This document shows positions 1-21,752 of a DNA stretch of 22,031 nucleotides, piece by piece. The translations under genes and the position numbers were made by a program. Each line of letters starts with the position of its first letter. Position 1 is the stretch's first letter. Location: the IMG/VR virus record IMGVR_UViG_3300036909_000147, positions 1 through 22,031 of that record, one strand, 5' to 3'. The notes beneath the pieces are model-generated. The model ran no database searches, was not told the origin of the DNA, and saw only the letters and a program-made list of their open reading frames with translations. The stretch comes from a virus.

Positions 1-1102
1 CCCCGGTAGACAGTTCCTTGAGCCCAAAGAAATCTTTCAGTCCGGCCATGATGCCGGATGGGTTCTGCGCCGCCTTTGCGGTTCCGCCTATCCCCACGCC
101 AATCGCAGCACCTTCGGCTGCTCCCACCGGCCCCCCCACCGCCATGCCAATCGTCCCACCGATGATTGCGCCGGGGCCGTAGCCGACCTGCGCCATGCCG
201 GACATAAACTCGGCCCCAGCGCCCTTCCAGTTCCCGGCCAACACCAGCGACATGCCGGCAGCGAAATGCGCTAACATACTCTCGGCCCTGGTGATCCAAT
301 CGACCAGAGTCTTCATCCACCCGACAACGTGTTCGATTCCCTTGGCCATCTTGTCGAAGCTGAAGGCCGCCCCTTCAATGGAATTGTCTCCGCTAAACAC
401 GCCAATGAGATTCGTGAATGCCAGCGCGCCAGTCTTGACTGCCTCCCCGATCCCTTTCATGATGGACCAGGTATCCTTCAGGATCGGAACGGCATAGGTC
501 GCCAGCTTATCGGCTATTTCTGGGATGCGATCCGCGAAAGCGCCAACCATCCCCTTCATCTTGGTCATGGCGTCATCGTTGGGGAACATCTTCTTAAAAA
601 CGTCCGCAGCGAAGTCCATCCCCAGAAATTGCAATCCAACTTTGAATTTTGTGAACTCCTGCCGCATGTCGCGTACACGCTTCATGGTCGGTTCGAAGTC
701 GGCCCCAAGCCCCTGGTTCAGCTTCCCGATGAACCCCATCAGGTCGCCGGCCCGCTCGCGCAACTCCGGAGTCCACCAGATCTCTTCCAGCGAAGCGCCC
801 AGCGCCTTGGTGACGATGTCCAGGGAACGCACCGACTGTGCGCTCATCATCATTTTTATGGACATTTTTTGATAGCCCAGATCGGCCATCGCCACTTTAT
901 CCACCAAGCCAACCACCACGCCGGACATGCTCACAAACGCGCCGACGATACCAACCTGTGCCTCCAGGATGTGCTTTAGTGCGCCCGTAGCGAACCGATT
1001 CACCGCCATGTCGGCATCGCGGAGAACGCCGTTGAGTTTCTCGAACGCGGGGGTATCGACATCCGTGCCGATCCTGACCAAGTACTCCTGAAGATAATTC
1101 AC
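1..1102 (-). CDS. Tail tape measure protein, N-terminal part (cut by window edge)
   Basis: The reading frame is open on the minus strand from the GTG at 1102 to the left edge, about 367 residues, with no stop. It begins VNYLQEYLVRIGTD. The protein is rich in alternating hydrophobic, Lys, Met and Gly stretches, with a hydrophobic segment near residues 40-60 and a glycine-zipper-like hydrophobic segment (GGTIGMAVGGPVG) near residues 315-350. This composition is typical of tape measure proteins, which set tail length and contact the membrane during DNA ejection. It follows the tail chaperone G/GT, the canonical position. GTG is chosen because, with the mobile element removed, it overlaps the chaperone stop (GTGA) and has AGGAG 5 nt upstream. 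In the present sequence that ribosome site is 1.27 kb away, and an in-frame ATG at 1135, inside the element's left-end hairpin, could extend the protein by 11 residues. Family inferred from context and composition. Confidence 0.85.
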   Translation of the reverse strand, partial: MNYLQEYLVRIGTDVDTPAFEKLNGVLRDADMAVNRFATGALKHILEAQVGIVGAFVSMSGVVVGLVDKVAMADLGYQKMSIKMMMSAQSVRSLDIVTKALGASLEEIWWTPELRERAGDLMGFIGKLNQGLGADFEPTMKRVRDMRQEFTKFKVGLQFLGMDFAADVFKKMFPNDDAMTKMKGMVGAFADRIPEIADKLATYAVPILKDTWSIMKGIGEAVKTGALAFTNLIGVFSGDNSIEGAAFSFDKMAKGIEHVVGWMKTLVDWITRAESMLAHFAAGMSLVLAGNWKGAGAEFMSGMAQVGYGPGAIIGGTIGMAVGGPVGAAEGAAIGVGIGGTAKAAQNPSGIMAGLKDFFGLKELSTG

Positions 1103-1115
1103 CGGATTGCGCGGG

Positions 1116-1139
1116 AAGCCCCTGGCTTCAGCCATGGGG
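1116..1139. repeat. Left-end copy of 24-nt subterminal hairpin repeat
   Basis: Identical to 2338-2361. It folds as CCCC-TGGCT, loop TC, AGCCA-(T)-GGGG, a stem with one unpaired T. Hairpins close to each tip are the recognition structures of TnpA in IS200/IS605 elements, so this is read as the left-end hairpin. It starts 13 nt inside the proposed left tip. Read on the minus strand it contains an ATG (1135-1133) in frame with the tape measure gene. Confidence 0.8.
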
Positions 1140-1150
1140 ATGGATAGCGC

Positions 1151-1167
1151 GGCGGCTTCGAGCCGCC
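1151..1167. repeat. Second left-end hairpin
   Basis: A perfect 7-bp stem GGCGGCT / AGCCGCC with a TCG loop lies between the left-end repeat and tnpB. It could be part of the left end of the element or affect transcription entering from either side. Nothing equivalent is seen at the right end. Confidence 0.55.
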
Positions 1168-1206
1168 CGCTCCCGCTTCTCCTTTCTTATTGGGAAGGTT
1201 TCGTGC

Positions 1207-1219
1207 TATACTGTGCTTA
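1207..1219 (+). promoter_or_regulatory. Probable leaderless promoter of tnpB
   Basis: TATACT at 1207-1212 is followed by exactly 6 nt and then the ATG at 1219. Transcription would start at or next to the A of the start codon. No Shine-Dalgarno is close to the ATG. The -35 region is weak (TTCTTA with 17-bp spacing). The same layout is seen at 16395 and 20554. Confidence 0.5.
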
Positions 1220-2337
1220 TGAAACTGACGGCCAAGGTAAAACTGGTAACAAACCAGATCCCCTATGCCGCCCTTCAGGAGACGATGGCAAGGGCCAACG
1301 CCGCCTGTAATTGGATCAGTAATCTCGCTTGGGCCAATAAGACATTCCAAGCATTTGCCATCCAAAAATTCGCGTACCATCCCGTTAAAAAGGAGTTCGG
1401 CTTGGCGGCACAGGTCGTCATCAGGTGCATTTCCAAGGTGGCTGATGCCTACAAGTTGGACAAGAAAACGAAGCGCACATTCCGCCCAACCGGGGCTATC
1501 AGCTTTGATGACCGTATTTTGAAGTGGCACATCGACAAGCAACTGGTCAACATCTGGACCACCAGCGGACGGCTGAAAATCCCCTTCGTTAGCGGCGCGA
1601 GCCAACTGGCGTTGCTGCGCTCCCGGCAGGGGGAGTCGGATCTCCTGTTTCAGAATGGGAATTTCTACCTTGCGGCAACCTGCAATGTGGAAGAACCAGA
1701 CCCGTCCGACGTGACTGATTTCCTTGGCGTGGACCTTGGCATTGCCAATATTGCCAGCGATTCGGACGGTAAGCAGTACAGCGGAAGCCAGGTGAAGTCG
1801 GTTCGCCATCGCCAGCGCCGCTTGCGCTCGAAACTTCAACGGAAACAGACCCGCGCCGCAAAGCGTCGGCTGAAGAAACTCTCCGGGCGTGAGCGGAACT
1901 TCGCCAGCCACACAAACCATTGCATTTCTAAGCAGATCGTTGCCGAAGCTAAACGCTCCGGTCGAGGCATCGCCATTGAAGACCTTGGCGGCATTCTCGA
2001 ACGGGTCAAGGCCGGGCGCAAGCAGCGAGCAGTTCTGCATAGTTGGGCGTTTGCACAGCTTCGGGCTTTCCTGGAGTACAAGGCGGCGCTTGCGGGTGTT
2101 CCACTTTTCACCGTGGACCCGCGCAATACGAGCCGGGAGTGCTCCGCTTGCGGGCACACTGACAAGCGCAACCGACCCAACCAATCGACATTCCGGTGTA
2201 GAGCGTGCGGACACGCCGAACACGCGGATACCAACGCTGCCAGGGTAATCTCTGGCAGACCGCCATGTAAACGCGGTGAGCGGGTCCATAACCTGCGACT
2301 TAGCGGATTGTGCGTTTCTGCGCATAGTGCCAGCTAA
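1219..2337 (+). CDS. tnpB: TnpB RNA-guided nuclease (IS200/IS605 accessory protein)
   Basis: The protein is 372 residues from the ATG at 1219; a GTG six bases earlier is also in frame, but the ATG fits the family start (MKLTAKVKL). All three RuvC acidic residues are present: D172 in GVDLGI, E254 in AIEDLG and D337 in HADTNAA. A zinc-binding CxxC pair at residues 308/311 and 327/330 sits between the second and third RuvC motifs. An N-terminal helical region and a basic Arg/Lys-rich stretch (about 198-222) precede RuvC-II. TnpB uses a guide RNA from the element's right end to cut DNA next to a target-adjacent motif, which favours element retention. Length and motifs are those of an intact nuclease, not of a catalytically dead TnpB-derived regulator. 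It is transcribed against the surrounding tail operon. Confidence 0.95.
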   Translation: MKLTAKVKLVTNQIPYAALQETMARANAACNWISNLAWANKTFQAFAIQKFAYHPVKKEFGLAAQVVIRCISKVADAYKLDKKTKRTFRPTGAISFDDRILKWHIDKQLVNIWTTSGRLKIPFVSGASQLALLRSRQGESDLLFQNGNFYLAATCNVEEPDPSDVTDFLGVDLGIANIASDSDGKQYSGSQVKSVRHRQRRLRSKLQRKQTRAAKRRLKKLSGRERNFASHTNHCISKQIVAEAKRSGRGIAIEDLGGILERVKAGRKQRAVLHSWAFAQLRAFLEYKAALAGVPLFTVDPRNTSRECSACGHTDKRNRPNQSTFRCRACGHAEHADTNAARVISGRPPCKRGERVHNLRLSGLCVSAHSAS

Positions 2338-2385
2338 AAGCCCCTGGCTTCAGCCATGGGGTAGTTTACCGGCGCTCCTGTTGTT
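2240..2385 (+). ncRNA. Predicted omega (reRNA) guide of TnpB
   Basis: In characterised TnpB elements the guide RNA scaffold comes from the 3' end of tnpB and the right end, and the first ~16 nt beyond the element form the guide. Here the right-end hairpin (2341-2361) lies just before the tip at 2369, so the guide would begin at 2370 with CGGCGCTCCTG. The 5' limit is only an estimate. The prediction rests on position and the hairpin; no transcript evidence is available. Confidence 0.4.
2338..2361. repeat. Right-end copy of 24-nt subterminal hairpin repeat
   Basis: Identical to 1116-1139 and begins 1 bp after the tnpB stop (TAA 2335-2337 precedes it directly). It folds as CCCCTGGCT-TC-AGCCA(T)GGGG. 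It ends 8 nt before the proposed right tip TTTAC. It would serve both as the transposase-recognised right-end hairpin and as the terminal stem of the guide RNA scaffold. Confidence 0.8.
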
Positions 2386-2991
2386 CCTGTTGCGCGGCGC
2401 GCGCGCGCCTACGGTTCTCCTCTGTCACGTCGATAATCATGGAAATGTGGGCGAGGTCGTGGAGGTCATAGGTTCCGTCGAATAGCTCATGCTGGCGCCA
2501 GTAACCCATGATGACGGGGCGGTAGAGGAACGCGTCTAGACCTTCGGGGAATGGGACTGGGTCGAAGCCAATTTCGCCTTCTCCTCCAGATCCTTCTTCG
2601 TCACCGCGATCTCCGCCTTGACGCGCTCTAGCGTAGGGTCGAAGTTGAAATCCGACGCCTCCATGGTGAGCTTGTTGAAGAGGCTGACATCGGATTCAAT
2701 CGCGAGGTCGGGCTCAAGCCAAGGCGCTTTCTCCCCGGTTTCATCGCGTCGCTCACCGTTATAGAAGCGGATCGGCACTTCGCCGGCATGCGTTTGCTTA
2801 TAGATCCAGCAGTAGGACAGGAGTAAGTCCTGGACTTGTTCCCACACGTCCTTATCGCGCAGGGCGCGTCCGGAGACGACCTGCATGGCGTGCCAGTTGC
2901 CGATGGCGGCAGGGACGATCCCGATGCGGAACCGCCTGCCTCCGATCTCAACGTCTTTCGTCTTCTTGGAACTATCTTCGTTCGCGTTCAC
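2366..2991 (-). CDS. Tail assembly chaperone GT fusion made by -1 frameshift
   Basis: A second minus-strand frame, shifted by -1 relative to the G-like ORF, is open from about 2690 down to TAA at 2366-2368. Its last part encodes a convincing protein segment (EGLDAFLYRPVIMGYW, then a Tyr/His/Asp-rich middle and an Arg/Gln-rich helical tail ending QQERR). There is no good independent start in that frame. Long-tailed phages commonly express such an ORF as an extension of G by a programmed -1 slip just before the tape measure gene. The likeliest slip site is T TCC CCG at 2551-2545, three codons before the G stop, giving about 208 residues. This heptamer is not canonical, so the exact site is uncertain. 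The stop codon lies within the inserted element's right tip. Confidence 0.7.
2536..2991 (-). CDS. Tail assembly chaperone, G-like
   Basis: 151 residues from a GTG at 2991 (MNANEDSSKK), with GAGG about 8 nt upstream. The protein is acidic, with a small beta-rich N-terminal part (VEIGGRRFRIGIVPA) and a lysine/glutamate-rich C-terminal helix ending SHSPKV. It lies between the tail tube and tape measure genes, the invariant place for the G-type chaperone that coats the tape measure protein and recruits tube subunits. The -1 frame overlapping its end carries the T-like extension. Sequence similarity to a named family is not obvious, so the call rests on size, order and the frameshift arrangement. 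Confidence 0.75.
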   Translation of the reverse strand: MNANEDSSKKTKDVEIGGRRFRIGIVPAAIGNWHAMQVVSGRALRDKDVWEQVQDLLLSYCWIYKQTHAGEVPIRFYNGERRDETGEKAPWLEPDLAIESDVSLFNKLTMEASDFNFDPTLERVKAEIAVTKKDLEEKAKLASTQSHSPKV

Positions 2992-3542: not shown

Positions 3543-5009
3543 CTACTGCTGGACGTACACGGTCACAGCCAACGACTGTCCCGCCTGGGCCAGAATCAGC
3601 GCCACAGTGATCGGCGGCATCACGCGGTTTGCGCGCCGTGCCTGCGGCCACGTGGAAACAGGCTGCTGGTACACCCAGTAGCCTTTCGGCATTGGCGCAT
3701 TGAGCGCCAGCGTCTTGGGCGGCGCTCCGAGTTGCGGCCCCAGCCAAGTTCCAGACGGGGCGATGAACCCGATGTTTTGCGAGTCCACGCACGCCTGCGA
3801 GACGGCGTTCTGCATCGAGGTGCACCCCGCATTGGTGATGGGGATGGAAGGCAGCGACTGGAGCAGCGACAGGCCGTTCTGCTGGATGGCGGCAGAGAGC
3901 ATATCCAGGAACAGGAGGATGTCCACGAACATGCCCGATGGGGACACGCCGTAGTTCCACCAGATGCCCCCGTTCTGCCACTGGAGCACGCAGTTGAGGT
4001 TGAGCCCGACGGCCGAACGATCCGGCAGCCCGCAGTATGCCGCAACCTGCGTGAGTGAGAGCGGCTCCGGCGCGACCCCGGCTGGCGTGACGCCTCCGCC
4101 CGGAGCGGCCACGTTCTTGTACATCAGGTTGAAGTACGAACCCGGCAAGCCCGTATTCAGCGCCATCATCTGCCCCATCGCATAGGCGGCGGCGTAGATG
4201 TTCGAAGGATAGGCGCCGGACTGCGTGGTCGAGTATGCCAGGAACGTCCGAGTGAACGCAGCAACCTGCATCGCGGCGGCCAAGCTGATCATCGGAGATC
4301 CAACGTCGCCAGTGAATCCGGTGGTCGTGGCGAAGTACCGCGACTTGGGCTTGACTGACTCGATGTAGCTGGCGATTGCCATCTGATCGCTGTCTGCTGC
4401 CGTCCCTGCGAAGTGGCAGGCGTACCACTGCGGATTGGCCCGGCAGGCGGTGACGGCCTGGAGCGGTGTTTCTCCGATGGCGGTGATGTTGATGGTCAAG
4501 CCGCCGGTCCCGCTTCCGCCGGTGGTTGGCAGGTTATTCGCAACGCTGTAGCCAGTCCCCTGCGAGCCAGGGATGATGGAAACTGCCGTCGGCGTCCCAC
4601 CGCCATTCACGGTCACGATCAGCACCTGGCCGGCCTGTGCGCCGCCCTGTGTGACGGTCACGATGTCGCCAGCCACGTAATTGACCGGAGAGCCGGTCCC
4701 TATGGCTACCGCGGCGATTGCCGTCAGATCCTGGCGGCCGGCCCAGAGGTATGTTGCGCCAGCGCCAAAGTACAGCCCGGCGGCCTTGTATTCCGGCATC
4801 GACGTGGTGAACCCGCCGGCCAACATGTCGATCAGCGACTCGTAAAGCCGCGTCCTGGAGTTGGCTCCCACTGACGGAATCACCGCGCTCGGGCCGACGA
4901 TGAGAGCCTGGTTGAACGCTGGAGCGCTTGCCGTCGGTTCGATGACTACGGTGACGGGAAGTATCAGATCCAGCGGAAGGGGATTCGGAACAACGAAAGC
5001 AGTTCCCAT
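3543..5009 (-). CDS. Tail sheath protein, DUF3383-like
   Basis: 488 residues from the ATG at 5009, chosen over an upstream in-frame start at 5066 because it has AGGAG 10 nt upstream and leaves the preceding gene non-overlapping. The N-terminus (GTAFVVPNPLPLDLILPVTVVI), the 'FNQALIVG' strand and the YESLIDML...YKAAGLYFGAG region fit DUF3383 phage proteins, thought to form the contractile sheath. A glycine/threonine-rich beta insertion at about residues 108-176 (YVAGDIVTVTQGG ... GTGYSVANN) interrupts the fold. The C-terminal third (EGLSLTQVAAYC-type segment, WWNYGVSPSGMFVDILLFLDML) is characteristic of this family. It is followed 16 bp later by the tube gene. Confidence 0.78.
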   Translation of the reverse strand: MGTAFVVPNPLPLDLILPVTVVIEPTASAPAFNQALIVGPSAVIPSVGANSRTRLYESLIDMLAGGFTTSMPEYKAAGLYFGAGATYLWAGRQDLTAIAAVAIGTGSPVNYVAGDIVTVTQGGAQAGQVLIVTVNGGGTPTAVSIIPGSQGTGYSVANNLPTTGGSGTGGLTINITAIGETPLQAVTACRANPQWYACHFAGTAADSDQMAIASYIESVKPKSRYFATTTGFTGDVGSPMISLAAAMQVAAFTRTFLAYSTTQSGAYPSNIYAAAYAMGQMMALNTGLPGSYFNLMYKNVAAPGGGVTPAGVAPEPLSLTQVAAYCGLPDRSAVGLNLNCVLQWQNGGIWWNYGVSPSGMFVDILLFLDMLSAAIQQNGLSLLQSLPSIPITNAGCTSMQNAVSQACVDSQNIGFIAPSGTWLGPQLGAPPKTLALNAPMPKGYWVYQQPVSTWPQARRANRVMPPITVALILAQAGQSLAVTVYVQQ

Positions 5010-5664: not shown

Positions 5665-6048
5665 CTAACTTCCTTGCATTCTGACGAGCAGCGCCGCATA
5701 GAAGCCATTGTCGGACCACGGTCCCACCGCCTGAACGCGATACAGCGTCCCATGCCACAGGATCTTGTCCGATATCGCGCCCGCTGTTTCGCTGGTCACG
5801 TGGATCGGTTGCGTCGTCACAAACAGGATCGACCCTTCTACCCGATCACCCGCAGGAAATTGCCGCAACGCTTTGTCGCCAGCAATCGTCAGTGTGCCGA
5901 AGGCGGGAATGGTCTGTGTGGCATTCGCGATCCACCCGCCAGCGCCGAAAGCTCCGGCGGTCCTCAAAATCGCGAGGCCGGCGTTATCGTTTCCGACGGA
6001 CTCGCCAAGATCGGAATCGAGAGCAACATCAGATAGATCAAGTGGCAT
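5665..6048 (-). CDS. Probable head-tail joining (stopper) protein
   Basis: 127 residues, ATG at 6048 with AAGGA 6 nt upstream, overlapping the end of the preceding neck gene by 11 bp. The second half (ILWHGTLYRVQAVGPWSDNGFYAALLVRM) is a beta-rich segment resembling the closing part of head-tail connector/stopper proteins, where a loop and barrel seal the portal channel. Function is inferred from size, gene order and this segment; no catalytic motif is present. Confidence 0.6.
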   Translation of the reverse strand: MPLDLSDVALDSDLGESVGNDNAGLAILRTAGAFGAGGWIANATQTIPAFGTLTIAGDKALRQFPAGDRVEGSILFVTTQPIHVTSETAGAISDKILWHGTLYRVQAVGPWSDNGFYAALLVRMQGS

Positions 6049-6541
6049 CGGTTTCCTTGCCGTTCTCGCGCACTAGACTCGTTATCGCGCGCCGGAGCTG
6101 TCCGGTCGATATGCCGGGCCGATCTGAACCCTTCTGGCGAATCGTGGAGGGCGCGTTCGAAGCCCACCCGTTAGCTTCGACCGGATACCTCTTCGCGGCG
6201 TTGGACGCCACAACCCCGGCCAACTTCAATTCACGTTCGGCCCTCGTTGGATCTTGCTCAAGCACCGCGCGCGCGGCGGCTTCCAGATGCGGCGTGATGG
6301 TCTGCTTGCTCTTCTCTATCGCAGGTTCGATCCACGGACGGGGAGGCTGGTTACGCAGAGTCGAACCTTTTGAAAACAAAAACATAGCCTCGGCGTTATT
6401 TATGGTTTGGCCCTTGCCCCTGCGTGATGCTTTCTGCGCCGGAATCCCCACAAGCACATCGCTGTTTCTGATCCGCTCCAGCGCCTTCTTGAGATCAGCG
6501 AGACCAGGTCCGGATTTGGTGACAGTGACGGGAGAAGGCAC
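6038..6541 (-). CDS. Neck / HK97-gp10-like tail component
   Basis: 167 residues from a GTG at 6541, which has GAGG 7 nt upstream; an in-frame ATG at 6586 would give 182 residues but overlaps the preceding gene. The sequence NAEAMFLFSKGSTLRNQPPRPWIEPAI, followed by a helical region and then NAPSTIRQKGSDRPGISTGQLRRAI, is the signature of phage neck/virion morphogenesis proteins of the HK97 gp10-like group. These act at the head-tail interface or in tail completion. It lies between the DUF4054 connector and the stopper candidate. Confidence 0.75.
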   Translation of the reverse strand: MPSPVTVTKSGPGLADLKKALERIRNSDVLVGIPAQKASRRGKGQTINNAEAMFLFSKGSTLRNQPPRPWIEPAIEKSKQTITPHLEAAARAVLEQDPTRAERELKLAGVVASNAAKRYPVEANGWASNAPSTIRQKGSDRPGISTGQLRRAITSLVRENGKETDAT

Positions 6542-14171: not shown

Positions 14172-16385
14172 TCATATTGCCGAGCCTGAACGACAGTTCT
14201 GCGCTTTCATCGCACGGAGCATCTTAGCTGATGGCTCGAACTTTACGGTCTCCTGCGGTGCGCCCTTTGACGAACCGCCGCCCTTGCCGAATTGACCGGC
14301 ATTGGCTCCGCCTTTTACGCGCGGGTGTTTGGACTCCACAAACTCATCCAGCGCCAGCGCCCGCTCGTTGTTCGTCAGCGCCTTATGGAATGCCAACTTC
14401 TCGATAAGCGCCTGCACTGGCATTTCGATCATGCCGCCCAGGAATGATTCGGGGTACATCGAAAGGAACGCATCGCGCGCGAATTCCGCGTCAGGGAAGC
14501 CGATGCAAACTTTGTTTTCATCCTGCCGTTGATCCACATCCGGCCCGAGGTCAATCATGCGGAACACTTGGGCGTTGTCTGCTTTTTCATCCGGCCCCAC
14601 AATCACGTCGATCTCATCGCCGTCGAGGCCGAATGTATCCTCGATGTAGCCATAATCGTGGATGATATAGGCCGAATACACGATCTTTCCATAGCGGTTC
14701 TTGATCACCCGCTGCACGCCCACAGGGAACTCCACCGCAATCGGCAATCCAGCGAAGTCGTACCGCCGCACCACACGCGCCTTGGCGCCTTTCACAATGA
14801 CCGGCGCGGGACGCGAGTCGGCCGCCTTGGCCAGCTTCGAAAGCAACTCTTCGCCGGAAGGCTCCGCGCCTAATTCGCCGCTGCCCGCCTTTAACTCGCC
14901 AGGTTTGGACTCGGACTCGGCGCCGCCGGCCATCTCGCCCATACCGCCGAAGCCAGCGGCGTCTTCCTTCTCGGCCGCCGCGATGTCCTCGTCGTGGATG
15001 GCCGTGCCAAAACCAGTAATTGCACTTTGCTGTTGGATCTCTTTGAGCGCCTGGACTTTGTTGAACAGACCGACATTCAGCAGCGACGTAACGCTCGCCA
15101 CCGTATCGACGGTGAGCTTGCCTTTTTCCTCTTCCGTCAGCACGCGCACAGACGGAAAGTCCAATTCCAGATCGTCGGGCACTTCGCCCAGTTCCGATTG
15201 CCACATGATCGGATAGAGCTTATCCAGTTGGGGCCGGAGCCCGTGCTCCTGCTCCATCGCTATCCGCTCTTCGTAGATCCGCTCGTCGGCATCGTTGCTC
15301 TGCCCCAGGCCGGAGAGCGTGCGCCCAAACAACCGCGTGACAGGGATCTCCGCCGCGCCGGCAATGTCCATCTGGAACTGCGCATACAACTCAGCGAACC
15401 CAGAAGCGGACCAGTTCGTCGATTGAAGCGACCCATCCTTCGGCAGCAGCGCCAGGCTCTGGTTGCTGAGAAGCTGGTTGAACGCTTCCATCCGTCCATG
15501 GAATTGCTGCGCCGCGGCTCCGGTCATGGATGCCCCGGAAAGCATCTGCGCCAACTCCGGCATCACCATCCCCAGGATCTGCGCGCGGAACGTCAGAGAC
15601 ACCAGATTGGCGCTGAGGTTGTCGCGCTTGCGCAGTTCCTCGTAGACTGGTGCCATCACCGAGATGCCCCACATACTGTAGGCTTCCCGCTCCGGCGTCG
15701 GCACTTGCGGCCCGGTGAATCTCAGAATGCGGCTTGCGTGAACCTTGAACGACTTGTCCCGCGCCGTGACCTCATAGAACTCCGGTAGGTTAAAGTCCGT
15801 TGGCCTGGTGATATCCGTGCAGATTTCCAACGAGGGATGAATGCCGGTCCACCGCTCGAATGGAATCAGACCCTTATACGCGCCGATCTCGATATCCTTC
15901 AGGTTCAGAGGCTCATCGAGTTGATTCTCGTGCCCGTCGATGACGATTAGCGCGCCAGCGCCGCCGAACAATCGCGCCCACTGAATCGTCTGGGTAATCC
16001 GATCCGCGGTGCATGTCTTCCGAATCAACTTACTGATCCGGTCCAAATCCTTCGGGTCCGCATCCGTATTGACCTTCGGCCACGCACGAATCATGTCCTT
16101 CGCTGGCGTGTCCACGATGCGCCGCACGATCCAGTGGTTCTCGTACAGCGTGATCAGCAGCCAGTAGTCGAACGTCAACCGCTGGAGGATGTAGTCGGCA
16201 CCCTCTGCCAGATTCGGCATCCCCGCGCCCAGCCGGGCCGGTGCATTTACGAAGGCATCGAAGGCCGCGCCGCTCGCGTTAGGGTTGATCCCCAGCATCT
16301 GCGCGATGGGGTTCACTTCCGGCGCCCACCGCCGGCGGCCCAGCCGTGCATTGCAGTTGATCGGGATGGGAGCGGGTGTGGCCAT
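14172..16385 (-). CDS. DUF1073 portal protein fused to a pyrophosphatase-like domain
   Basis: 737 residues. Residues ~40-440 match the DUF1073 (Gp6-like) portal family: DYWLLITLYENHWIVRRIVDTPAKDMIRAW near 73-102, and the diagnostic IPVTRLFGRTLSGLGQSNDADERIYEE near 347-373. The portal is the 12-fold ring through which DNA is packaged. After a low-complexity acidic linker (about 465-525) comes an alpha/beta domain at ~530-660 with HDYGYIEDTFGLDGDEIDVIVGP. The DGDEIDV (D588, D590, D593) fits the metal-binding signature of family I inorganic pyrophosphatases, and the domain resembles the InPase domain of phage polyvalent proteins. The tail (KHPRVKGGANAGQFGKGGG) is a common phage protein end. There is no Shine-Dalgarno near the ATG. 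Confidence 0.85.
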   Translation of the reverse strand: MATPAPIPINCNARLGRRRWAPEVNPIAQMLGINPNASGAAFDAFVNAPARLGAGMPNLAEGADYILQRLTFDYWLLITLYENHWIVRRIVDTPAKDMIRAWPKVNTDADPKDLDRISKLIRKTCTADRITQTIQWARLFGGAGALIVIDGHENQLDEPLNLKDIEIGAYKGLIPFERWTGIHPSLEICTDITRPTDFNLPEFYEVTARDKSFKVHASRILRFTGPQVPTPEREAYSMWGISVMAPVYEELRKRDNLSANLVSLTFRAQILGMVMPELAQMLSGASMTGAAAQQFHGRMEAFNQLLSNQSLALLPKDGSLQSTNWSASGFAELYAQFQMDIAGAAEIPVTRLFGRTLSGLGQSNDADERIYEERIAMEQEHGLRPQLDKLYPIMWQSELGEVPDDLELDFPSVRVLTEEEKGKLTVDTVASVTSLLNVGLFNKVQALKEIQQQSAITGFGTAIHDEDIAAAEKEDAAGFGGMGEMAGGAESESKPGELKAGSGELGAEPSGEELLSKLAKAADSRPAPVIVKGAKARVVRRYDFAGLPIAVEFPVGVQRVIKNRYGKIVYSAYIIHDYGYIEDTFGLDGDEIDVIVGPDEKADNAQVFRMIDLGPDVDQRQDENKVCIGFPDAEFARDAFLSMYPESFLGGMIEMPVQALIEKLAFHKALTNNERALALDEFVESKHPRVKGGANAGQFGKGGGSSKGAPQETVKFEPSAKMLRAMKAQNCRSGSAI

Positions 16386-20833: not shown

Positions 20834-21250
20834 CTACGCTGCTACGACTTCGCTTTGCTTCCCGTTGCCACAGATGCGATCCAACTTGATGTCTTCGAAG
20901 GAGCGGCCATCATTATCCAGGTGGAAGTTCCGAGAGGACAGATTCTGGATGCGGCGGACAATTACGTCTGTGTACGCCGGGCTCAGTTCACAACCGAATC
21001 CTGAACGTCCAAGACCGAAGGCTGCTGCGAGAGTGGTTCCGCTTCCACAGAAAGGATCAAGTATCACGTCTCCGGGGTCGCTGAATGCTTTGATGAAGAA
21101 CTCCGGAAGCGCCCTCGGGAAGACTGCCTTGTGCCCCGTGCTTTCGCTGTTCACCGCGATCTCCAGGAGCACGATCCGGATGCGGGCGAATCGCTTCCAT
21201 TCAAGCACGGCATCGCGCAGGTGGGAAACGTCCTGGTTGGTGGCCACCAT
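20834..21250 (-). pseudogene. DNA methyltransferase, C-terminal part (split gene)
   Basis: 138 residues from an ATG (MVATNQDVSH) that is probably an internal methionine of the full enzyme. It has HKAVFPRALPEFFIKAFSDPGDVILDPFCGSGTT, which includes the S-adenosylmethionine-binding motif (DPFCGSGTT) of N4-cytosine/N6-adenine methyltransferases in the order catalytic motif first, SAM motif second. The catalytic half is in the gene just upstream, in another frame. A run of eight G (minus strand, 21261-21254) lies 3 nt before this start. Alone this fragment could not methylate DNA. It could be a broken gene, a phase-variable gene or a sequencing artefact. Confidence 0.7.
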
Positions 21251-21290: not shown

Positions 21291-21752
21291 TCATATCGCG
21301 ACAGCGTACGGGTTGTGCTTGATCACATGCTGGCGCGTGAAGTGGAATACCGGCTCGAACTGATTGCGATGCCGGAACCGATACTCGCCAGGGAAGCCGC
21401 TATGCTTCCAGATGAACTCGTCGCGGAACTGCCAGCACCACTGCCGTTTCATCGCCAGGACCAGGTCCTTGACGTACAGCAGGCGCTCGCCGTCCTGACA
21501 GCTCTCTTTGATATTGAGGAAGAAGCTACCGTCTGGCGCTAGCACCTGCTCGATCACCGCCGCCACGTCCTTGAACCACGCCACGTATTGATCCGGCGGG
21601 ATGGGCTTGAAGCCGCTGCTCTTGTCGTACTCGCGTTGCTCCGCGTACGGCGGGGACGTGATCACCACGTTGGCCTTCCGGCCGCCAAGGAGGCGCTGGA
21701 CTGCTGTTAAGTCCCGGCAATCGCAGCAGGAGACGGCGTATTCCAAGCTCAA
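21291..21752 (-). pseudogene. DNA methyltransferase, N-terminal catalytic part (split gene)
   Basis: 153 residues from a TTG at 21752 with AAAGG 8 nt upstream. It contains the catalytic motif TSPPY (ITSPPYAEQREYDKSSG), then LAPDGSFFLNIKE and WKHSGFPGEYRFRHRNQFEPVFHFT, all typical of phage N4/N6 DNA methyltransferases. It ends at NPYAVAI followed by TGA. A third frame between the two halves encodes a plausible linker (MIRDNGGGKRAGGG), so two single-base lesions, one near 21294-21300 and one in the G run, would rejoin the enzyme at about 306 residues. Target sequence cannot be told. Such enzymes protect phage DNA from host restriction. Confidence 0.8.

What the first reader, a model, noticed from the sequence alone, without database searches (positions are those of the whole stretch)
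1098..2385. Self-consistent TnpB guide and target motif: the element would cut the unoccupied tail junction of related phages
TnpB guides are read from DNA just beyond the right tip, and the target-adjacent motif equals the sequence left of the insertion. Here the guide would start CGGCGCTCCTG (2370 on) and the motif would be TTCAC (1098-1102). The joined empty site reads TTCAC directly followed by that guide sequence. An intact RuvC triad suggests that TnpB could cleave competing empty alleles in a co-infecting phage, behaving like a homing element in a virion gene cluster.
Basis: partly seen in the sequence, partly recalled or inferred. Interest (0 to 1): 0.62.

Follow-up and report, generated by a model that had tools for sequence, protein, structure and literature searches.

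The report
TnpB insertion element in phage tail genes
A small IS605-type insertion element with an RNA-guided nuclease (TnpB) sits exactly at the start of a phage tail gene; its parts fit the known TnpB scheme well, but the one real relative found without the element carries a changed target that this guide would match poorly.

Summary
The element is 1103-2369. TTCAC lies at 1098-1102, the guide begins at 2370, the TnpB is intact, and two identical 24-nt hairpin repeats mark the ends. Joining the flanks gives TTCAC + guide, but that holds by construction for any precise insertion. Independent evidence is stronger. TCAY precedes the left end in 30 of 31 relatives (about 5 expected). A distant Streptomyces relative has unoccupied homologous sites that align without gaps across TTCAC|guide. 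The right-end RNA scaffold shows strong covariation. So this is a tnpA-less (IS1341-type) IS200/IS605-group element with a probably functional TnpB and TTCAC as its motif.

The claim that it would cut the empty junction of related phages is only partly supported. The only natural empty allele found (L112, 98% identical phage) keeps TTCAC but has an extra in-frame 9-bp repeat there, so the guide mismatches at positions 3, 4, 10, 13 and 15 of 16. No IMG/VR contig carries TTCAY followed by the first 14 guide bases. TnpB-mediated retention, the homing analogy and a plasmid gene drive are already published. New details: insertion exactly at a stop/start overlap, and a natural occupied/empty pair with a diverged target.

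The parts
1098..1102 (+). TTCAC, inferred TnpA target / TnpB target-adjacent motif; its complement includes the GTG start codon of the tape-measure-like gene
   Evidence: Direct reading; TCAY precedes the left end in 30/31 relatives vs 5.2 expected, TTCAY in 17 vs 1.4; preserved in empty allele L112
1103..2369 (+). whole insertion element (1267 bp), tnpB only, no tnpA
   Evidence: Absent as one block from L112, which otherwise aligns at 98-99% on both sides; no Y1 transposase match in the record
1116..1139 (+). left-end subterminal hairpin AAGCCCCTGGCTTCAGCCATGGGG
   Evidence: 24-nt direct repeat, 100% identical to the right-end copy
1219..2337 (+). tnpB, 372 aa; RuvC D172/E254/D337, zinc-ribbon Cys308/311/327/330
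   Evidence: NCBIfam NF040570 E 3.7e-53, Pfam PF07282/PF01385, triad 73/73, PDB TnpB/Cas12f matches
2237..2337 (+). omega-RNA (reRNA) scaffold overlapping the 3' end of tnpB: stem 1 2237-2258, stem 2 2259-2277, stem 3 2300-2304 with 2333-2337
   Evidence: RNAalifold and pair counts on 17 relatives: 94% of cells paired, 60 cells changed on both sides vs 19.9 shuffled, 0/500 shuffles
2338..2361 (+). right-end hairpin, identical to the left-end one
2362..2369 (+). right tip TAGTTTAC; relatives end TTTAC, TTGAC, CTTAC or ATGAC (T or G where the motif has C)
   Evidence: in relative L058 the TTGAC boundary is confirmed by empty sites
2370..2389 (+). predicted 16-20 nt guide CGGCGCTCCTGTTGTTCCTG
   Evidence: Position by analogy with ISDra2 TnpB (PMC8612924); 15/20 matches to the corresponding stretch of empty allele L112
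2..1102 (-). tape-measure-like tail gene, interrupted at its start codon; native start GTG (1100-1102); in the occupied allele an in-frame ATG at 1133-1135 is supplied by the left hairpin
   Evidence: In L112 GGGAG-N5-GTG precedes the ORF; leader codons listed; matches in Agathobaculum phages begin at residue 4
2366..2991 (-). upstream tail gene (2536-2991) with an overlapping -1 frame extension ending QQEQQERR; the element's right tip supplies the TAA stop (2366-2368)
   Evidence: Translations of window and L112

Best explanation
A non-autonomous (tnpA-less, IS1341-type) IS200/IS605-group element inserted, by transposase in trans, 3' of a TTCAC on the + strand, exactly at the GTGA stop/start overlap between two late tail genes of a contractile-tailed phage. 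Shown: precise element boundaries, hairpin ends, conserved TCAY motif at the left end, intact TnpB, covarying right-end RNA scaffold, and a natural empty allele in a 98% identical phage. Inferred: TnpB bound to the right-end RNA with the guide read from 2370 onwards cuts DNA carrying TTCAC followed by that sequence. Its first target is the donor joint left when the element is excised, and by extension any sister or co-infecting genome with the same empty site; repair from an occupied copy would restore the element. This is retention or gene drive, as known for other TnpBs. The sampled sister allele (L112) has a changed target and would probably be cut poorly or not at all.
For: TnpB family assignment and triad; identical end hairpins; occupied vs empty alleles; TCAY at left ends 30/31 vs 5.2 expected; ungapped empty sites reading TTCAC|guide in several Streptomyces genomes for relative L058; scaffold covariation; Y1 transposase directly upstream of tnpB in relative L029 (61% identical TnpB) but absent here; TnpB mechanism and proposed transposon homing (PMC8612924), plasmid gene drive (PMC11870625).
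Against: No activity or RNA data. No fully matched empty target was found in IMG/VR. The only empty allele differs at five of 16 guide positions. No tnpA in this or the two sister fragments, so mobility in trans is assumed; the records are fragments.
Confidence: 0.85

Rival explanations
1. The element acts as an inter-phage homing element: it spread through this phage population by cutting empty tail junctions in co-infecting phages, and L112 is a surviving allele that escaped because its target changed (9-bp repeat plus substitutions).
For: Occupied and empty alleles exist in near-identical phages with neighbouring sample numbers. Differences between them cluster at the target: four substitutions and a 9-bp indel within about 45 nt. 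TnpB-driven invasion is shown for plasmids (PMC11870625).
Against: The clustering is weak evidence: 4-7% of windows across the aligned 5.1 kb have as many differences, because these phages carry other recombinant or hypervariable patches. Only one empty allele. The 9 bp are an in-frame tandem repeat (GAGCGACGG GAGCAACGG) in a low-complexity tail, easily explained by slippage.
Confidence: 0.12
2. Ordinary insertion with no current effect on other phages: a one-off IS insertion in the phage (perhaps from the host), carried passively; TnpB only matters, if at all, when a transposase in trans excises the element.
For: tnpA absent. The same family is scattered through phages, Chloroflexota, Verrucomicrobia and Streptomyces, i.e. 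it moves by transposition rather than staying at one homing site. Among the fetched loci no other phage carries the element at this site except the near-identical contig L002.
Against: TnpB triad and RNA scaffold are intact, with compensated stem changes unique to this copy (A-U at alignment pair 39/57, C-G at 40/56), suggesting recent or continuing selection on function.
Confidence: 0.35
3. TnpB has been repurposed, for example as an RNA-guided repressor like TldR or a regulator of the tail operon.
For: It lies antisense to and within a late operon; phage-encoded TnpB-derived repressors exist (TldR, PMC13418256).
Against: TldRs are nuclease-dead (general knowledge), whereas the triad here is intact. 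Guide, ends and motif are those of a mobile element. The only window match to motif + guide within 3 mismatches is the element's own right junction, with TTTAC.
Confidence: 0.03

Closest known systems
ISDra2 / TnpB of Deinococcus radiodurans (IS200/IS605 family)
   Same: TnpB with RNA from the right end, guide taken from the flank, target-adjacent motif equal to the insertion motif, proposed homing-like restoration of the donor site (PMC8612924)
   Different: ISDra2 carries tnpA and uses TTGAT; this element has no tnpA and uses TTCAC; activity untested here
IS1341-type (tnpB-only) elements of the IS200/IS605 group
   Same: tnpB flanked by IS605-type subterminal hairpins, no tnpA
   Different: None in kind; host replicon is a contractile-tailed phage and the site is a tail-gene stop/start overlap
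TnpB gene drive of IS200/IS605 elements in plasmids (PMC11870625)
   Different: Shown for multicopy plasmids, not phages; here the only sampled element-free copy is mismatched
Phage homing endonucleases (group I intron or free-standing)
   Same: Would favour the allele carrying the nuclease gene in mixed infections
   Different: Protein-coded target specificity and fixed sites; this family inserts at many unrelated TCAY sites and reprograms itself at each

Membership tests
IS200/IS605 group, tnpB-only (IS1341-type) | TnpB with RuvC D-E-D triad and zinc ribbon | tested here: met
IS200/IS605 group, tnpB-only (IS1341-type) | Subterminal hairpins of the same orientation at both ends | tested here: met
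   24-nt direct repeat; the right copy is predicted to fold as the expected hairpin, the left copy folds otherwise in a longer stretch
IS200/IS605 group, tnpB-only (IS1341-type) | Insertion 3' of a fixed short motif without target duplication | tested here: met
   TCAY in 30/31 relatives; ungapped empty sites for L058; motif kept once in L112
IS200/IS605 group, autonomous (IS605-type) | Y1 transposase tnpA in the element | tested here: not met
   No PF01797 match in the window or the sister records; present next to tnpB in relative L029
RNA-guided TnpB nuclease | Structured RNA scaffold ending at the right tip | tested here: met
   Covariation in three stems; no Rfam match
RNA-guided TnpB nuclease | RNA-guided, motif-dependent DNA cleavage | not testable with these tools
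   Needs biochemistry
Homing element between phages | Guide matches the empty allele of related phages | tested here: not met
   Only one allele available, L112: mismatches at 3, 4, 10, 13 and 15 of 16; no IMG/VR contig with TTCAY + first 14 guide bases
Homing element between phages | Biased inheritance in mixed infection | not testable with these tools
   Needs phage crosses

The most novel reading that the evidence does not exclude
A TnpB element behaves as a gene drive in a phage population, and the sister allele L112, with a recoded/duplicated stretch exactly at the target, is a natural drive-resistant allele.
Probability: 0.1. Interest if true: 0.65.

Novelty: new member of a known kind. 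Interest (0 to 1): 0.32.

Why it matters
TnpB as a retention device and plasmid gene drive is established or preprinted; phages are an obvious next arena because co-infection brings occupied and empty genomes together. This locus supplies a natural occupied/empty pair in near-identical phages, with a defined motif (TTCAC), guide and RNA scaffold, so the phage version can be tested directly. It also shows an insertion placed at a translational stop/start overlap, where the element provides the stop of one gene and a possible start of the next.

Tried and rejected
Rfam scan of the region: no match. More empty alleles via the tape-measure protein and the upstream tail protein: only L112 and the occupied L002 contig. 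Exact 22-nt hairpin elsewhere in IMG/VR: three other contigs; tblastn found no TnpB near it in two (L113, L114) and a distant 26%-identical one in L116. 17-nt guide matches in six other contigs are unrelated and lack TTCAY. The idea that the cluster of differences at the junction proves cutting or co-conversion was rejected as weak after an empirical test (4-7% of windows as dense). The 9-bp insert in L112 as a footprint of an excised element was rejected: it is a tandem repeat of adjacent coding sequence, not end sequence. DNA folding energies of the tips are not unusual (z -0.4 and -0.7), so the hairpins rest on repeat identity and family comparison, not on energy. A sigma-70 promoter search in the element found nothing. 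An L054 empty-site check in Streptomyces was uninformative beyond the left boundary.

Full report
What is there. The window is a 22-kb IMG/VR virus record with late genes of a tailed phage: portal, terminase-like, DUF3383 (assigned here, from general knowledge, to tail sheath) and a KPP10 Orf10-like structural protein. At 1103-2369 sits a 1267-bp element on the + strand, opposite to the tail operon. It holds one gene, tnpB (1219-2337, 372 aa), which scores 181 bits against NCBIfam 'RNA-guided endonuclease TnpB family protein' and matches the Pfam OrfB_IS605 and TNB domains, with PDB TnpB/Cas12f relatives. RuvC residues D172, E254 and D337 are identical in all 73 sequences aligned, and the zinc cysteines are in place. 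A 24-nt IS605-type hairpin sequence is present, identical, near both ends. No Y1 transposase is encoded in the record, whereas relative L029 has one immediately upstream of its tnpB. The element is therefore tnpB-only.

Motif and guide. The statement that the joined flanks read TTCAC + guide is true by construction and carries no weight alone. Three independent tests do carry weight. First, in 31 family members (including this one) anchored on the conserved left-end hairpin core, TCAC/TCAT lies within 30 nt upstream in 30, mostly 10-17 nt away, against 5.2 expected from random positions of the same loci (maximum 12 in 2000 draws); TTCAC/TTCAT in 17 against 1.4. The anchors were picked by hand on the hairpin side. 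Second, for a Streptomyces relative (L058) the unoccupied homologous site in other Streptomyces genomes aligns across TTCAC|TTCC; seven of the eleven alignments printed have no gaps at all, the junction stretch itself is ungapped in all eleven, and eight of eleven keep TTCAC. This fixes the boundaries for the family. Third, 17 right ends align and fold into three stems with strong covariation: 94% of cells paired; 60 cells changed on both sides against 19.9 in shuffles; slid controls 31-52% paired. Stem 3 pairs across the tnpB stop codon, just before the right hairpin, as expected for an RNA scaffold that ends at the tip and continues into the flank.

The right tip is TTTAC in this copy and T(T/G)AC-like in the relatives whose ends I could place. 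The motif has C at that position, so the occupied right junction differs from the motif by one base; that could spare the element from its own nuclease (inference; the ends were partly chosen by this pattern, except L058, which is confirmed by empty sites).

The real empty allele. L112 (IMGVR_UViG_3300050013_000004) matches the window at 99.3% left and 98.2% right of the element and lacks it. Contig L002/L111/L115 (IMGVR_UViG_3300050010_000009) is an occupied copy, 99.98% identical. L112 keeps TTCAC but continues CGTTGCTCCCGTCGCTCCTG, while the guide is CGGCGCTCCTGTTGTTCCTG: mismatches at 3, 4, 10, 13 and 15. The difference is a 9-bp in-frame tandem repeat (protein end ...QQERREQR in L112...QQERR in the window) plus three substitutions in the next 21 bp. 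TnpB of ISFba1 loses activity with single mismatches at positions 1-13 (PMC11061315); the archaeal TnpB7 tolerates single mismatches on its strong TAM but not on weak ones (PMC11043419). Five mismatches, two of them in the first four bases, make efficient cutting of L112 unlikely (inference). No contig in IMG/VR carries TTCAY followed by the first 14 guide bases. Six other contigs with 17 guide bases are unrelated. Which allele is ancestral cannot be told with two alleles.

Effect on the phage. The insertion lies at a GTGA stop/start overlap. In L112 the upstream frame ends CGG TGA and the tape-measure-like gene starts GTG, with GGGAG five bases ahead. In the occupied allele the upstream frame ends CGG TAA, the stop coming from the element's right tip. 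The GTG has lost its ribosome site; an in-frame ATG within the left hairpin (1133-1135) adds MAEARGFPRNP ahead of the native start. I see no good ribosome-binding site close to this ATG, so tail gene translation may be reduced (inference). 'Tape-measure-like' rests on position and sequence character; no Pfam family matched it.

How it works. Most likely a transposase supplied in trans placed the element 3' of TTCAC, and TnpB with its right-end RNA cuts the donor joint after excision, and any genome carrying the same joint, so that repair copies the element back. This was proposed as transposon homing for ISDra2 (PMC8612924) and shown as a gene drive in plasmids (PMC11870625). Nothing here is outside that scheme. 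Spread among co-infecting phages is a fair hypothesis, but its premise, a matching empty junction in related phages, fails for the only allele available. The excess of differences at the junction is suggestive of an escaped or co-converted target but weak, since 4-7% of windows along the same 5.1 kb are as dense.

Verdict. Correct observation, sound anatomy, ordinary kind of element; phage-to-phage homing unproven and, for the sampled sister, unlikely in its present form. A paper search for TnpB + gene drive + phage in the open library returned five papers; judging by titles, abstracts and term counts, none appears to report phage spread by TnpB. The library is incomplete.

Noticed in passing
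20834-21250 and 21291-21752 (- strand): Two adjacent ORFs match the C-terminal and N-terminal parts of one N6_N4_Mtase DNA methylase: the gene looks broken by a frameshift or stop between about 21250 and 21291, or it is an assembly error.
   Followed up: no
14172-16385 (- strand): The portal protein (Phage_portal_3, 737 aa) carries a C-terminal inorganic pyrophosphatase-like domain (PF18823 InPase, E 1e-18).
   Followed up: no
2366-2600 (- strand): The upstream tail gene (stop near 2536) overlaps a -1 frame extension rich in Q/E/R, like the lambda G-GT frameshift arrangement; the slippery site was not identified.
   Followed up: partly
3817-3912 and 5944-6188: Dense clusters of differences between the window and sister phage L112 within otherwise near-identical sequence, suggesting recombination or hypervariable patches in structural genes.
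   Followed up: partly
L113 (reverse strand, about 675), L114:10183-10204, L116:5408-5429: The exact 22-nt hairpin sequence occurs in other viral contigs; no TnpB relative was found in the fetched stretch of two (L113, L114) and only a 26%-identical one in L116: possible solo ends or other IS605-type elements.
   Followed up: partly
phage records: 182 Salinibacter ruber M8 phage records carry a TnpB relative, an unusually large group that might offer occupied and empty alleles to test TnpB spread in phages.
   Followed up: no
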